DNA of 64,000 nucleotides from Owenia fusiformis (taxonomy: Eukaryota; Annelida; Polychaeta; Sabellida; Oweniidae). The notes under the pieces are model-generated. The model did not search any database and was not told the origin of the DNA. It was given only the letters and a program-made list of their open reading frames with translations. Every line of letters starts with the position of its first letter. Positions within the stretch are counted from its first letter, which is position 1. The stretch is taken from positions 19,487,915-19,551,914 of the forward strand of contig CAIIXF020000001.1 of assembly GCA_903813345.2 (NCBI GenBank), given 5' to 3'. This document shows positions 24,701 to 30,900 of this stretch, in pieces. The translations under genes were made by a program, and so were the position numbers.

Positions 24701-26489
24701 TACCTCTAGCTAGAGGGGGAGGGGGGGGGGGCATTTTATAGGTCCCCAGTTTCAAAAATATACCATGCAGGATTCTAACCTATATCACTATATGCAGGAT
24801 ATATTAAACTCAATATAGAGAGGTGAAAGCTTGCATGTAAAATTGAAACGAAAAGTATAACATATTACTTAATCCAGTTTCAGGGTTCATGCTTAGAGTG
24901 GGATGCAGCATATAAAATACAGTTGGCAGTTCTATAGCCGATTTTCAGATACACAGGCCCGTAGCCAAGGAGGGAGTTCGATGGGTTTGTGAGAACCCCC
25001 TGGCCAAAACTCTTTCAAAATCATGCAGTTTTTCACCATTCTGAGCACTTTTTAAGTGATTTTGGCCATTTGTGGATCAAAATTGTCACAAGTGAACCCC
25101 CCTGGAATTTCTCAAAAAGTGAACCCCACTTTAGCATTGAAAGCTAAATTGCCAGCATAGTATTCAATAGACATGAGTATGATGATTCCCGTTGACACCA
25201 TCCGTTACATTTCAAATTTTCCATTCTAAACAAGAATCACTGACTGGATCTACTGTGACTTGGTATTGAAGCACAGGAACTTTTGATGGTTGAGGTTTAT
25301 AATGTCTCCGACTATACCTGTAATTCTCGAAATCGCTGTTCTCTCTTCAAAAGAGGAGACACGAAAATCTTTCCTTATATGGTCAAAATATTTCCCATGA
25401 TGCAGTTCGCGGAGGAACAAATTTATACTTCCTTGTTTTCCCTCATAGGTTTTACATGGGGATTTTCACACATATTTTTCAAACGATATATTCGTTCATA
25501 TTCCCGTACGAGGGTACAGAAAAAATTATTAGAAACGATTGATCTCTTATTAATCTTAATATAACAGCTATTTTCTTCATTGTATTGATTCATAGCGTGG
25601 TGAAAACGATGATTGAAAAGTGAGAAAATATTCCGGAAGAGAAGGTCACATGATCAGTTGACTAGTCGCCATATTGGAAAAAACAATTCCATTCGACTTT
25701 CAATACTTTCATGCCAATCTTACCGCACTACAAACTGCAACATCGATGCAACAACTGAATAAAAGTATTCATCTTCAAATTACATCATAGAGTTACGTTG
25801 AAAACCAACAAACAACTGAGCAGTAGACCAAAGAAGAAGCGTCGCTATTATCTAGGTCACTCTGTTCAGTGGTTCGAAAGCAAATCTATAGTACTCGTTT
25901 CCGAATTTTGTTGTTCATTGTACAATCTTTTATTGATTAAACTCGGTATACTGACTATTAAAGCAATGACAAAGAAGAATACTTCCGATGTTGTCATTGT
26001 TTTATTAAGCGTGCGGGTGTAAAAACAAAATTGCGTAATTAGTTTGATTTAGAACTTTCGGGTCACGCAAATAGCTAGGCGAAATGCATAGTGAGAAAAT
26101 ATTGACCAATCAAATTTTGTCCTTTTTGAGTGCTTTTTCAGTGCATATTTGCGAACGTTCTGATTCAAAGAGCGAATCGCGAAAGGGAGAATTTGTAAAG
26201 CTTGCCTCTTGTATGACTAGTCTAACGTCATGCATTTACTTCAGTTACTCCATCTAATTTTAAGGTAATATTTATCAAATTTAGGGAACAGATGTCACAC
26301 CCAAACCTGTATGATCACTAGACTAGATTTCATTCACTGTCATACATCTTACAATTTATTTCCTGAGTTTATGAATCAGTCTCCAGATCCAGATTCTGTG
26401 TTGAAAAAATTCAAAAAAGTTCAGGAGAAACTTACCAGCTGTATAATGCAGATTGTTATCAGGATACATCTGCCCGTACAGCAGCCCAT
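3749..26489 (-). CDS. NKAIN: NKAIN, Na+/K+-transporting ATPase-interacting protein (3' part outside window)
   Basis: NKAIN proteins are small four-pass membrane proteins that bind the beta-1 subunit of Na,K-ATPase. Three coding exons are visible, all joined in phase 0. Exon 1 is 26436-26489 and encodes [18 protein letters not shown]. Exon 2 is 17105-17242 (46 codons), beginning [14 protein letters not shown] and including QYRPRF. Exon 3 is 3749-3829 (27 codons), including [13 protein letters not shown]. These line up in order with the N-terminal half of human NKAINs (MGKCSGRC..., ERQIFDFLGYQWAP, QYRSRY, WVGWNAFIICFYLEVG), including the exon boundary before the VA-LERQ segment. The first three hydrophobic segments fall at about residues 5-22, 35-55 and 65-85. 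About 91 of roughly 207 residues are seen, and the rest lies left of position 1. Donors (GTAAGT, GTAAGT, GTAAGA) and acceptors are canonical. Intron 2 is 13.3 kb and holds a DIRS-type element; intron 1 is 9.2 kb. The gene is head to head with ASPH. The family call is very secure, the paralogue is not assigned. Confidence 0.93.
4156..4294. repeat. Hairpin MITE-like repeat
   Basis: A 139-bp near palindrome. The ends are GGTTATTTACTGG and CCAGAAATAACC. Inside, ATGGGTTTTATTCC pairs with GGAATAAAACCCAT, and GACAATATGATATT pairs with AATATGATATTGTC. The following 4370-4520 contains scattered similar fragments (CCCGGGGACAATACGAT, CCTGGGAAAACAG). No TSD is clear. Confidence 0.7.
5311..6512. mobile_element. 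Non-autonomous DNA transposon with 5-bp target duplication
   Basis: The ends are CAGGGGCGTAGGAAGG and TTCCTACGCCACTG, inverted, with a second inverted block TACGCCAAAA/TTTTGGCGTA just inside. GTAGT flanks both sides (5306-5310 and 6513-6517). The 1.2 kb interior is AT-rich and non-coding. The CAG(G/T)GGCG terminus is hAT-like, and a 5-bp duplication would fit the hAT5 group; the superfamily is tentative. Confidence 0.7.
6915..7413. mobile_element. MITE with CACTGTTCCA inverted ends and 5-bp target duplication
   Basis: The ends are CACTGTTCCAAAACTAGTTA and its inverted counterpart TAACTACTTGTGGAACAGTG. The arms extend over about 60 bp (GTCAATGTAACAAAATGGAT and its complement). GTAAG lies on both sides (6910-6914 and 7414-7418). 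The interior repeats the motif GTTACATTGAC in both directions. A 129-bp relative lies at 44728-44856. Confidence 0.8.
7998..8770. repeat. Two copies of a dispersed CACCTGCCATTTGTTACAG repeat
   Basis: Fragments at 7998-8060 and 8709-8760 share ACCACCTGCCATTTGTTACA preceded by a (T/C)ACATGCAAAAT-type stretch. A third copy in the opposite orientation lies at 62963-63012. They are short and decayed; no element class is assigned. The rest of 7420-8825 shows nothing recognisable. Confidence 0.55.
8826..8985. repeat. Dispersed repeat (AACACCTCT...AACTTGAAATGTGAACA)
   Basis: The same stretch occurs at 56033-56215: paired AACACCTCTC/TAATC(T/C)(A/G)AACACC motifs, then TCTCCCATTG, CTTGAAATGTGAACA and GCCAGTCCC. 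Partial copies lie at about 18765-18805, 19725-19775 and 33408-33470. Overlapping short ORFs here are by-products. Confidence 0.6.
9394..9835. repeat. Palindromic repeat at the left end of the DIRS element
   Basis: The segments 9394-9483 and about 9706-9797 are nearly perfect inverted copies of each other, around a loop of about 220 bp (GAAGTTTGATTGTAATTATA and its complement). The stretch that follows (9790-9832) is the inverted match of the right end at 14834-14875. The region thus carries three related copies of the DIRS terminal sequence, two facing one way and one the other. Confidence 0.8.
10024..11127 (-). CDS. DIRS element tyrosine recombinase
   Basis: An open frame of 367 residues. 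The N-terminal half has the SAM-like core-binding features of DIRS recombinases ([27 protein letters not shown]). The catalytic half has the first Arg ([13 protein letters not shown]), the His-x-x-Arg box ([14 protein letters not shown]) and a C-terminal Tyr (RRFYNKPL). It would integrate a circular DNA intermediate without making a target-site duplication. It lies last in the element and overlaps the end of the polymerase ORF. Confidence 0.92.
   Translation of the reverse strand: MVAKDVEPFNHTSSCATPRTEDPKPTIQSRGTTSVEKTDINCLSLVRNSLQKQGLSVPVTEIILQSWRPKSQKQYEVYLKKWISFCNTREIDPVQGTLQLGLEFLMTLSVDNLGYSAINTARSALSSCINFPKTETSFGQHPLVVRFMKGIFNKNPPLPRYTKTWDVSVVLRHLQSYFPIEKITLLELTLKLIMLIALVSAQRAQTLHLLSLNNLIIEKDCYVFTIYDNVKQSKPGKSNPIIKLHTYDDPSLCVVVTLKEYIQRTEKLRAGESKLFVSTIKPHKAVSKDTISRWLKLELSRAGIDTDTFKGHSTRSAAVSAASRSDVNVDLILKTAGWSSDCCFRRFYNKPLDIDNEKTFGKAVLSL
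10827..12857 (-). CDS. DIRS element reverse transcriptase / RNase H protein
   Basis: An open frame of 676 residues. The reverse transcriptase region covers about residues 30-290, with [42 protein letters not shown] and the active-site box YYIDDCC. RNase H follows at about 355-475 ([49 protein letters not shown]). The C-terminal extension [19 protein letters not shown]...DAFSKTW...YAFPP is characteristic of DIRS/PAT polymerase proteins. The 3' end overlaps the recombinase ORF by about 300 bp in another frame. Confidence 0.92.
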   Translation of the reverse strand: MKYFYSEWEKITSDQTILNAIAGYDIEFIDVNAIPRSDHPRPMIFSDSECSAVEAEIQKFLERGILKPVEHSKIGYLSSIFLTPKSDGTKRTILNLRNLNEHVEYQHFKMENFQSVINMITENCYMSTLDVKDAYYSVPVSETSQKFLQFEWKNTIYQYTCLAQGLSSAPRIFTKIMKPVFAKLRNEGFMSVYYIDDCCLISDSYEECKRNIATTIDHLQHLGFMLHPEKCDLIPKQVIKFLGFEINSNTMEVKLPETKAVAIQSLCIETLRRKNKISIRELAKLIGTLVASFPGVRYGRLYYRHMDNNKSLALSQNCGNFDTKIALNLDAQNEIRWWIRHIKNATNPISVIDPQHVLRSDSSMAGWGVFDVTNNTRTGGRWNYVESRHHINYLELLAIFLALKTFCRSGRNKHVRVETDNTTAMTYVNNMGGSKSIDCNILAKQIWQWCIFRDIWLSSSHIAGIENVEADSESRIFHDETEWMLDEQVFADICNIDMFPNPILDLFASRLNNQLGKYASWRPDPEAEFIDAFSKTWNSMVTYYAFPPFSILMRVLNKIQHDRADVLLILPLWPTQPWWPKMLNLLTTHPVVLPQGRKILSLPYNPEAQHPLRKLTLIACHLSGIPSRNKDFLSQLPKSSYNLGDQNHRNNTRFISRNGFRSVIRGKLIQFKELYS
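12932..14161 (-). CDS. DIRS element ORF1, gag-like protein
   Basis: An open frame of 409 residues at the 5' end of the element. The first third is acidic and Ser/Asp/Lys-rich. The middle is a helical-looking region containing [16 protein letters not shown] and [20 protein letters not shown], which resembles the capsid-like region of DIRS ORF1 proteins. The C-terminus is a Gly/Arg-rich RGRGNRGRG block and a Gln/Asn-rich tail, likely RNA-binding. No zinc knuckle is seen. The assignment rests on position ahead of the polymerase ORF and on composition. Confidence 0.75.
   Translation of the reverse strand: MTSQMVRDKPLGAKTPSECEKMDLDDSILDETPSVSGVKKKTPRKTIPRKSGKNDDIKNITEAITSSISSGMSDLTEMMSSSLQDLKETIQSGYEYDQFDDDSYNDNDHDDSDQTPVKKMKTDMQTCIDNDTVSSENEDTSDLMKQLQSKVNKSNEGQGPPLNKAMSSLLNDLIQNVLKGDEESQKLDDYKTPSNTPLVCAARGNEQIWSRISSEVRSSDIKMQQALKPMMCSIVATSRALEVLDSLKTAVGGKTDEFQDQFGNMANLLYDSIQMMCLSNYKFNMRRRELIKPDIAHSFKHLCDKTSPVTTFLFGDDITKRVKDISEMNKTQINSSVFNQSRGSYRGSYRGRGNRGRGTRGRGRGQNHFLGQGQNRNYSQRQGYAQNKSSRGKGRGNTAQNQDNKQSNK
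14810..14876. repeat. Right terminal inverted repeat of the DIRS element
   Basis: This segment (GGCGCATGCGCAGAACTATC ... GGTATTGTAAGGAGGTATAA) is the reverse complement of two separate left-end pieces joined together. The pieces are about 9480-9512 (outer) and 9790-9832 (inner). DIRS elements are known for split inverted terminal repeats and an internal complementary region that lets the DNA circularise. Confidence 0.75.
14880..17100. other. NKAIN intron 2, upstream part: no recognised feature
   Basis: AT-rich intron sequence with no long ORF, no inverted repeat and no satellite that I could see. A fragment at about 16850-16915 (TTACCCTTTGTATTT ... AACAGAGCTTCTCTAG) resembles the inverted arms of the 21107-23530 element. 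Confidence 0.6.
17356..17528. mobile_element. Tc1/mariner-type MITE (TA target)
   Basis: The ends CAGTAAAACCTGT and ACAGGCTTTACTG are inverted and flanked by TA on both sides (17354-17355 and 17529-17530). The body repeats GTGTTCCACTT/AAGTGGAACAC in both orientations, so the copy is nearly palindromic. A sister copy lies 180 bp away. Confidence 0.8.
17710..17887. mobile_element. Second Tc1/mariner-type MITE of the same family
   Basis: Ends CAGTAGAACCTGTCT and AGCAGGTTCTACTG, with TA at 17708-17709 and 17888-17889. The interior again carries repeated GTGTTCCACTT motifs. A third, more decayed copy is at about 43182-43350 (TGTAAGTGGAACACC ... GTGTTCCACTTAAACAGGTT). Confidence 0.8.
18790..19575. 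repeat. Inverted-ended repeat
   Basis: About 18795-18835 (ACGGTGTCCAACCCAAACGC TCTTACAT) faces an inverted partner at 19530-19566 (AAGAGCGTTTGGATTAGACA CCGTG). Between them lie a TACCGGTAA-rich segment at each end and a CpG-bearing middle. It seems to have been inserted in, or grown from, the AACACCTCT-type repeat that flanks it. Class unknown. Confidence 0.5.
19930..21100. other. NKAIN intron 1: no recognised feature
   Basis: AT-rich intron sequence. I see no exon, satellite or inverted repeat in this stretch. Confidence 0.55.
21107..23530. mobile_element. 2.4 kb element with long inverted repeats and TA target
   Basis: The ends CCCTGCGTGCAGAGTCTAGT and ACTAGACTCTGCACGCAGGG are inverted, with TA on each side (21105-21106 and 23531-23532). 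The inverted arms extend over about 340 bp, with AGTGAAGACGAAGCTCTCTT near 21405 and its inverted partner near 23215. The middle has no transposase. Fragments of the arm recur at about 16850, 23915, 30358, 33586 and 39410, so the family is common in this genome. Confidence 0.75.
23696..23905. repeat. Dispersed repeat with GATCTCCCC / CACCCAC motifs
   Basis: It begins AGTGATCTCCCCAGCATTAA AGCAAGTGGG and includes ACCCACTGGAGATTTT and TGCACCCA. Related copies in the opposite orientation lie at 29279-29432 (GGTGGGTGCAAGCCTGATTT ... GGGGAGATCA) and 53222-53382. A short or decayed interspersed repeat with no coding content. Confidence 0.6.
24956..25140. repeat. GTAGCCA(A/G)G-type interspersed repeat
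   Basis: It begins GGCCCGTAGCCAAGGAGGGA and includes CATTCTGAGCACTTTTTAAG TGATTTTGG and GTGAACCCC. The same family is whole at 62231-62435 and partial at about 4957-5112 and 57469-57512. Confidence 0.65.
25141..26435. other. NKAIN intron 1, region next to exon 1: no recognised feature
   Basis: No exon is seen. Several short ORFs here lack splice context or similarity and were not called. The GC and CpG content looks a little higher around 25600-26200, which could reflect regulatory sequence, but I see no specific motif. Confidence 0.45.

Positions 26490-30900: not shown

What the first reader, a model, noticed from the sequence alone, without database searches (positions are those of the whole stretch)
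26436..27965. Head-to-head NKAIN and ASPH: microsynteny shared with human 8q12.3
Here NKAIN (minus) and ASPH (plus) are immediate divergent neighbours, with start codons 1.4 kb apart. In human, ASPH and NKAIN3 are also neighbours in 8q12.3 and transcribed away from each other (established map knowledge). If this animal is an invertebrate, the pairing would date to the bilaterian ancestor or earlier. A shared or interlocked promoter, or regulatory blocks inside the long NKAIN introns, would explain why it stayed together. The conservation of the pair is inference from two species.
Basis: partly seen in the sequence, partly recalled or inferred. Interest (0 to 1): 0.7.

Follow-up and report, generated by a model that had tools for sequence, protein, structure and literature searches.

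The report
Ancient head-to-head ASPH–NKAIN gene pair
Two unrelated genes that sit back to back in this invertebrate, ASPH and NKAIN, are also neighbours in mammals, and a second mammalian copy of the pair may exist, so the arrangement is probably an inheritance from a very old animal ancestor rather than a coincidence.

Summary
NKAIN (minus; exon 1 at 26436-26489) and ASPH (plus; ATG at 27905) are divergent neighbours. One correction: 763 bp of the 1,415-bp spacer are a multicopy TTAA-flanked foldback transposon, so the spacer was about 656 bp before insertion.

The assembly has 12 chromosome-scale sequences and 498 Mb, fitting the annelid Owenia fusiformis by number and size only. All 4 NKAIN matches fit one gene.

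Papers place CLVS1, ASPH and NKAIN3 together on human 8 and cattle 14, and list CLVS2, TRDN and NKAIN2 in one 2.2-Mb deletion at human 6q22.31. Recalled: both human pairs are adjacent and divergent, and triadin (TRDN) is related to ASPH. If so, the pair predates its duplication in vertebrates. Here TPD52, YTHDF-like, stathmin and clavesin-like genes share the chromosome but lie megabases away. Random order within the chromosome would give this divergent adjacency with p about 1.5e-4.

No other invertebrate could be examined. A shared promoter is possible here but is unlikely to be the long-term glue. New member of a known kind: conserved microsynteny.

The parts
26436..26489 (-). NKAIN exon 1, start codon at 26489
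   Evidence: [18 protein letters not shown], donor GTAAG; Pfam NKAIN from profile position 1
17105..17242 (-). NKAIN exon 2
   Evidence: Pfam NKAIN 75.4 bits for the six-frame match
3749..3829 (-). NKAIN exon 3; further exons lie outside the window, down to C1:19479478
26490..27904 (.). spacer between the two start codons (1,415 bp; 656 bp without the transposon)
26794..27556 (.). foldback (MITE-like) transposon, arms of 332 nt 89% complementary, TTAA at both ends; 39 further places of nearly full length at 93-98% identity among the 40 candidates scored
27752..27775 (+). GCATGCGC (NRF1-like) and ACTTCCTGT (ETS-like) words 7 bp apart, factor names recalled; possible ASPH promoter
   Evidence: words chosen after reading the spacer
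27905..27965 (+). ASPH exon 1 (proposed)
   Evidence: splice-consistent, no homology of its own
29528..29719 (+). ASPH exon 2, hydrophobic membrane-type segment (proposed)
32137..32429 (+). ASPH exon 3, Lys-rich stretch; its end aligns to solved ASPH
34397..34555 (+). ASPH exon 4, TPR region
   Evidence: the following exon of about 85 nt was not found
39801..39937 (+). ASPH exon, TPR region
40535..40729 (+). ASPH exon, TPR region
41504..41641 (+). ASPH exon before the 15.2-kb intron
56836..56971 (+). ASPH exon after the 15.2-kb intron
57300..57391 (+). ASPH hydroxylase-region exon
58065..58195 (+). ASPH hydroxylase exon, HVWPHCGPTN
58406..58556 (+). ASPH last coding exon, FDDSFEHEVW, ends at TAA

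Best explanation
NKAIN and ASPH form a divergent gene pair that was already adjacent in a common ancestor of this invertebrate and vertebrates (the bilaterian ancestor if the animal is an annelid). In the vertebrate line the pair was copied with its chromosome region, giving ASPH-NKAIN3 (with CLVS1) and TRDN-NKAIN2 (with CLVS2), while the other two NKAIN copies lost the partner. In this genome the two start codons were about 0.66 kb apart before a transposon arrived, so the two promoters share one short stretch, and a break there would damage both. I infer that this close spacing kept them together in compact invertebrate genomes, and that long-range regulation kept them together in vertebrates after the spacer grew. 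Shown here: gene identity, adjacency, orientation, transposon insertion, one NKAIN locus, marker families on the same chromosome. From papers: mammalian gene lists. Recalled: human orientation and distances, TRDN-NKAIN2 adjacency, kinship of triadin and ASPH. Inferred: ancestry and the cause of retention.
For: NKAIN: 4 of 4 matches fit one locus, near-full match when joined. ASPH: 475.1 bits to solved ASPH. The C12 hydroxylase ORF looks ASPHD-like: no TPR family in the 300 of 395 residues scanned, membrane-type segment by eye. Cattle windows list ASPH and NKAIN3 alone as candidate genes, with CLVS1/ASPH/CHD7 in a lower window and GGH/TTPA/YTHDF3/NKAIN3 in a higher one; another cattle study names ASPH, CLVS1 and NKAIN3 within 0.5 Mb of one marker; a human amplified segment at 8: 62.495-63.491 Mb lists RLBP1L1 (CLVS1), NKAIN3, ASPH. 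Human 6q22.31 deletion: CLVS2, TRDN, NKAIN2 among 8 genes. NKAIN1-4 lie at 1p35.2, 6q21, 8q12.3, 20q13.33 with YTHDF1-3 in parallel; a fish study takes nkain2/3/4 regions as 1R/2R products. On the window's chromosome: TPD52 1 of 1 match, the strongest YTH match, stathmin 3 of 3 matches, a clavesin/RLBP1-like gene. Spacer CpG observed/expected without the transposon is 1.01, higher than 181 of 191 window segments.
Against: No third lineage was examined. In 99 kb on either side of the window I recognised no other 8q12 or 6q22 neighbour by eye among ORFs of at least 105 aa, and only 8 of those ORFs were scanned by Pfam, so the case rests on one adjacency. YTH matches: 2 of 5 on C1, 1 on C6, 2 on C10. 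CRAL-TRIO matches: 3 of 26 on C1. The ASPH N-terminal family PF05279 gives 0 matches in this genome at E<=1, so sequence gives no support to triadin's origin from this gene. One survey reports that the vertebrate ancestor inherited 70 blocks, fewer than the 110-124 seen in shuffled genomes, so a match with vertebrates is individually less telling. PMC6585022, which covers NKAIN, concludes against whole-genome duplication as the source of its paralogon. The 6q22.31 list holds five other names besides CLVS2, TRDN and NKAIN2 and gives no order. The species name rests on chromosome number and size. The cause of retention was not tested.
Confidence: 0.58

Rival explanations
1. Coincidence: both genes belong to the same ancestral chromosome, and local shuffling put them side by side independently in this lineage and in vertebrates.
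For: The chromosome carries genes of several shared families scattered over 5.6-61.6 Mb, so gene order is otherwise shuffled. A survey found chance blocks in shuffled genomes (45-56 against 256 for the bilaterian ancestor) and no excess over chance for blocks inherited by vertebrates (70 against 110-124).
Against: About 1.5e-4 for a named divergent neighbour under random order within the chromosome. The linked TRDN-NKAIN2 set would imply adjacency before duplication, if triadin is an ASPH twin and the two are adjacent (both recalled).
Confidence: 0.17
2. The pair is ancestral and persists for no functional reason: with a spacer of about 0.66 kb there is little room for a harmless break, and nothing selects for joint regulation.
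For: Empty-site spacer of 656 bp. Most non-paralogous bilaterian-ancestor blocks kept in lophotrochozoans are described as denser than random.
Against: In human the spacers are recalled as hundreds of kilobases, yet the pair stays adjacent, while the survey reports that vertebrates lost 84% of the bilaterian-ancestor blocks. A 763-bp transposon was tolerated in the spacer here.
Confidence: 0.35
3. Bidirectional promoter: one shared regulatory region drives coordinated expression of NKAIN and ASPH, and that coupling is what selection keeps.
For: Head-to-head with 656 bp between start codons before the insertion; raised CpG observed/expected; an NRF1-like and an ETS-like word 7 bp apart near the ASPH start (words chosen after reading the spacer).
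Against: Human genes are recalled as about 0.5 Mb apart. The CpG-rich stretch is strongest inside NKAIN intron 1 (1.2-1.27 at 25.5-26.25 kb), not midway. A transposon now separates the two starts. A third promoter-type word, CGGAAGTG, has 0 matches in the window.
Confidence: 0.15

Closest known systems
Conserved ancient microsynteny and genomic regulatory blocks (Robert et al. 2022, PMC8851819, passages; Irimia et al. 2012, recalled and seen only as a citation)
   Same: Unrelated adjacent genes kept next to each other between distant phyla; long introns that could hold regulatory elements.
   Different: No regulatory target is identified; neither gene is a developmental regulator by recall; short spacer here, very long in human (recalled).
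Vertebrate paralogous regions with NKAIN, STMN, YTHDF and opioid receptors (PMC6585022, PMC7249433, PMC9353778, passages)
   Same: NKAIN1-4 and YTHDF1-3 lie in parallel there; the window chromosome carries NKAIN, a YTHDF-like gene and stathmins (and TPD52, whose place in those regions is recalled).
   Different: The main text of PMC6585022 has 0 occurrences of ASPH or TRDN and that of PMC9353778 has 0 of ASPH; PMC7249433 was not searched for them. Here the unduplicated state is seen.
Bidirectional promoter gene pairs
   Same: Head-to-head start codons under 1 kb apart once the transposon is discounted; CpG-retaining spacer.
   Different: Transcription start sites and co-expression unknown; not kept at that distance in human (recalled).

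Membership tests
NKAIN | full-length match to Pfam PF05640 | tested here: met
   304.5 bits, protein 1-208, profile 1-205 of 206 (exon ends partly chosen by eye, one or two junction residues approximated)
ASPH | TPR region followed by hydroxylase domain with both metal histidines | tested here: met
   PF05118 195.4 bits, TPR families, WPHCGPTN and SFEHEVW aligned to solved ASPH; the role of the histidines is recalled
ASPH | N-terminal domain PF05279 (shared by junctin and, by recall, triadin) | tested here: not met
   0 matches in the own genome at E<=1, none in the assembled protein at E<=0.01; the filing as ASPH rests on TPR plus hydroxylase
Conserved bilaterian microsyntenic pair | adjacency in this genome and in vertebrates | tested here: met
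   for this genome; gene lists in papers for cattle and human
Conserved bilaterian microsyntenic pair | same relative orientation in both lineages | tested here: inconclusive
   divergent here; human divergent orientation recalled only
Conserved bilaterian microsyntenic pair | presence in several independent phyla | not testable with these tools
   no other animal genome is held
Genomic regulatory block | enhancers of one gene within the other | not testable with these tools
   no chromatin or reporter data
Bidirectional promoter | divergent start sites within 1 kb | tested here: inconclusive
   start codons 1,415 bp apart now, 656 bp at the empty site; start sites unknown

The most novel reading that the evidence does not exclude
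The vertebrate muscle protein triadin arose as the genome-duplication twin of ASPH within a duplicated CLVS-ASPH-NKAIN block, and the divergent ASPH/TRDN-NKAIN arrangement has been held together since the bilaterian ancestor by regulatory interlocking that has survived twice in mammals.
Probability: 0.4. Interest if true: 0.6.

Novelty: new member of a known kind. Interest (0 to 1): 0.42.

Why it matters
One survey reports that vertebrates lost 84% of bilaterian-ancestor microsyntenic blocks, so a pair that may survive in two human copies is a good candidate for regulatory constraint. It also offers a simple chromosomal origin for triadin, a calcium-release protein of heart and skeletal muscle: one copy of a duplicated ASPH. 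Both claims can be tested directly by comparing genomes. I found no paper that names the pair as conserved: searches of the held library for ASPH+NKAIN3+synteny, NKAIN+microsynteny and NKAIN2+TRDN+ASPH+NKAIN3 returned 0 papers, and a search for at least three of triadin, ASPH, whole genome duplication, NKAIN and paralog returned 20, of which I saw a listing of 10 and no title on this point. Subscription journals, preprints and supplements were not searched.

Tried and rejected
Rejected: the C12 hydroxylase locus as the ASPH orthologue; its ORF has hydroxylase segments, partly in tandem copies, and a membrane-type segment by eye, and no TPR family in the 300 of 395 residues scanned. A further C12 match at 24.74 Mb was not looked at. 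Not seen: a larger 8q12-like block here. I recognised none of CLVS, GGH, TTPA, YTHDF or CHD7 by eye among the ORFs of at least 105 aa in the fetched flanks (10 x 10 kb on each side); 8 flank ORFs were scanned by Pfam, with matches in 6 (HSF DNA-binding, Glyco_transf_92, a CRT-like match below its cut-off, BACK, PDZ, Nucleotid_trans) and none in 2. CRAL-TRIO matches on C1 lie at 27.8 and 61.6 Mb. One search covered the wrong family (PF05781, MRVI1) through my slip.

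
Full report
What is there. The window lies at 19,487,915-19,551,914 of contig C1 (62.2 Mb) in a 498.3-Mb assembly of 525 contigs. C1-C12 are each over 31 Mb and sum to about 477.5 Mb, so no other contig can be that large; C13 and C14 are 0.66 and 0.19 Mb, and C15-C20 are 50 kb each. The paper on Owenia fusiformis reports 505.8 Mb, 12 chromosome-scale scaffolds and 26,966 genes (PMC9977687, passages). The fit is good but rests on number and size only; a COX1 search gave nothing.

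NKAIN. All 4 Pfam NKAIN matches scored in the genome (11 candidates) are on C1, minus strand, within 25.7 kb, and fit one gene. Exon 1 at 26436-26489 reads [18 protein letters not shown]; exons 2 and 3 are at 17105-17242 and 3749-3829. The protein joined by hand matches profile positions 1-205 of 206 at 304.5 bits. A single gene fits an animal outside the vertebrate expansion; human has four.

ASPH. Eleven exons between 27905 and 58556 join into two open stretches, with one exon of about 85 nt missing between them. The joined protein matches solved ASPH at 475.1 bits in two stretches over the TPR and hydroxylase regions, including the aligned WPHCGPTN and SFEHEVW stretches. The alignment shown starts at residue 146 against a chain that lacks the N-terminus; a 758-residue chain in the same table also has only two matched stretches. 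Pfam PF05279 does not match, so the first two exons are a proposal. The hydroxylase ORF at C12:24.52 Mb looks ASPHD-like.

The spacer. The two start codons have 1,415 bp between them. A foldback element fills 26794-27556: arms of 332 nt, 89% complementary, with TTAA at both ends in 6 of 6 copies examined, this one included. Of 1,840 first-look candidates 40 were scored: this copy and 39 further places of nearly full length at 93-98% identity. Such identity means that the insertion is young beside the pair. Without it the spacer is 656 bp with CpG observed/expected 1.01, higher than 181 of 191 half-overlapping window segments, median 0.41. Raised CpG also extends into NKAIN intron 1 (1.2-1.27 at 25.5-26.25 kb). 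GCATGCGC and ACTTCCTGT lie 7 bp apart at 27752-27775; the window holds 5 matches of the first word at 3 sites (the other two sites lie at the ends of the retroelement) and 3 of the second (the other two in the foldback arms). I picked these words after reading the spacer, so the printed chance figures do not apply; a third word, CGGAAGTG, was absent.

Comparison with mammals. A cattle study lists ASPH and NKAIN3 as the candidate genes of BTA14 27.19-27.96 Mb; CLVS1, ASPH, CHD7 for 26.40-27.04; and GGH, TTPA, YTHDF3, NKAIN3 for 27.36-28.17 (PMC12075139, passages). Another names ASPH, CLVS1 and NKAIN3 within 0.5 Mb of one BTA14 marker, among genes earlier linked to growth (PMC11014930, passages). 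A human amplified segment at 8: 62.495-63.491 Mb lists RLBP1L1 (CLVS1), NKAIN3 and ASPH (PMC2851616, passages). A 2.2-Mb human deletion at 6q22.31 lists ATP5LP2, CLVS2, FABP7, NKAIN2, PKIB, RN7SL564P, SMPDL3A and TRDN, without order (PMC9118736, passages). The parallel CLVS1-ASPH-NKAIN3 and CLVS2-TRDN-NKAIN2 is my reading. That triadin is related to ASPH through the junctin region is recalled, with support from the abstract of PMC3388061, which calls triadin and junctin structurally related, and from the title of a cited paper saying that Asph shares exons with junctin. The adjacency of TRDN and NKAIN2, the divergent orientation of both human pairs and their distances (about 0.5 and 0.17 Mb) are recalled.

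Macrosynteny. PMC6585022 lists NKAIN1-4 and YTHDF1-3 in parallel positions of a human 1/2/8/20 paralogon and concludes against whole-genome duplication as its source. PMC7249433 describes opioid-receptor regions on human 1, 6, 8 and 20 with NKAIN and STMN, and PMC9353778 takes nkain2/3/4 regions as 1R/2R products; all seen as passages. In this genome TPD52 (1 of 1 match; its place in those regions is recalled), the strongest YTH match (YTHDF by my inference), stathmins (3 of 3 matches) and a clavesin/RLBP1-like gene are on C1 at 5.6, 52.0, 10.0 and 43.7, and 61.6 Mb. C1 is 12.5% of the assembly. I chose these families because I expected them there. Against this, 1 of 5 YTH matches is on C6 and 2 on C10, and 23 of 26 CRAL-TRIO matches are off C1. 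The clavesin label is from recall: solved structures place that gene nearest RLBP1 (135.9 bits), then alpha-tocopherol transfer protein. The chromosome is thus shared and the order, as far as I saw, is not, except for this pair.

Chance. With genes spread evenly C1 holds about 3,366, and a named gene is the divergent 5' neighbour with p about 1.5e-4. A published survey found 256 new blocks in the bilaterian ancestor against 45-56 in shuffled genomes, with 93% kept in lophotrochozoans and 84% lost in vertebrates; but the vertebrate ancestor inherited 70 blocks against 110-124 in shuffled genomes (PMC8851819, passages). Conserved blocks are therefore a known kind of thing, and single vertebrate matches can be chance.

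Mechanism. I commit to common ancestry plus retention. Retention in this lineage is most simply explained by very close starts; retention in mammals needs something else, because there the genes are recalled as far apart, and long-range regulation is the usual proposal. Neither was tested.

Literature. No paper in the held library joins ASPH, NKAIN3 and synteny, or NKAIN and microsynteny, or all of NKAIN2, TRDN, ASPH and NKAIN3. The key earlier catalogue (Irimia et al. 2012) is not held, so the pair may already be listed there.

Noticed in passing
window 2936-3748: The splice donor of NKAIN exon 3 sits at the edge of a 116-bp tandem array: the word GTAAGACACACA occurs 8 times at 116-bp steps on the minus strand, one at the exon and seven possible decoys downstream.
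   Followed up: partly
window 41642-56835: A 15.2-kb ASPH intron holds other coding stretches: an AbfB-domain ORF on the minus strand (46172-46672, with further minus-strand ORFs 43872-45534 without family) and immunoglobulin-domain ORFs on the same strand as ASPH (54100-55465).
   Followed up: partly
window 9394-14875, minus strand: A retroelement in NKAIN intron 2 with reverse transcriptase and a tyrosine-recombinase-type integrase ORF and inverted repeats (44 nt at 9790-9833 and 14832-14875), resembling the DIRS/Ngaro kind (the class name is recalled).
   Followed up: partly
G000 C12:24520951-24521505: An ASPHD-like gene with three near-identical tandem copies of a hydroxylase segment inside one 395-aa open frame.
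   Followed up: no
G000 C1:19451737-19453500, minus strand: An HSF-type DNA-binding gene (37.5 bits) about 26 kb beyond the last NKAIN match; human HSF2 is recalled near 6q22.31. Orthology was not tested.
   Followed up: no
window 48513-50177: A 145-bp tandem array of 11.5 copies in the ASPH intron; another 145-bp array lies at 47359-47908.
   Followed up: no
G000 C1:19571672-19579238: Two tandem copies of a membrane-transporter-like gene downstream of ASPH; the one ORF scanned has CRT-like similarity below its cut-off.
   Followed up: no
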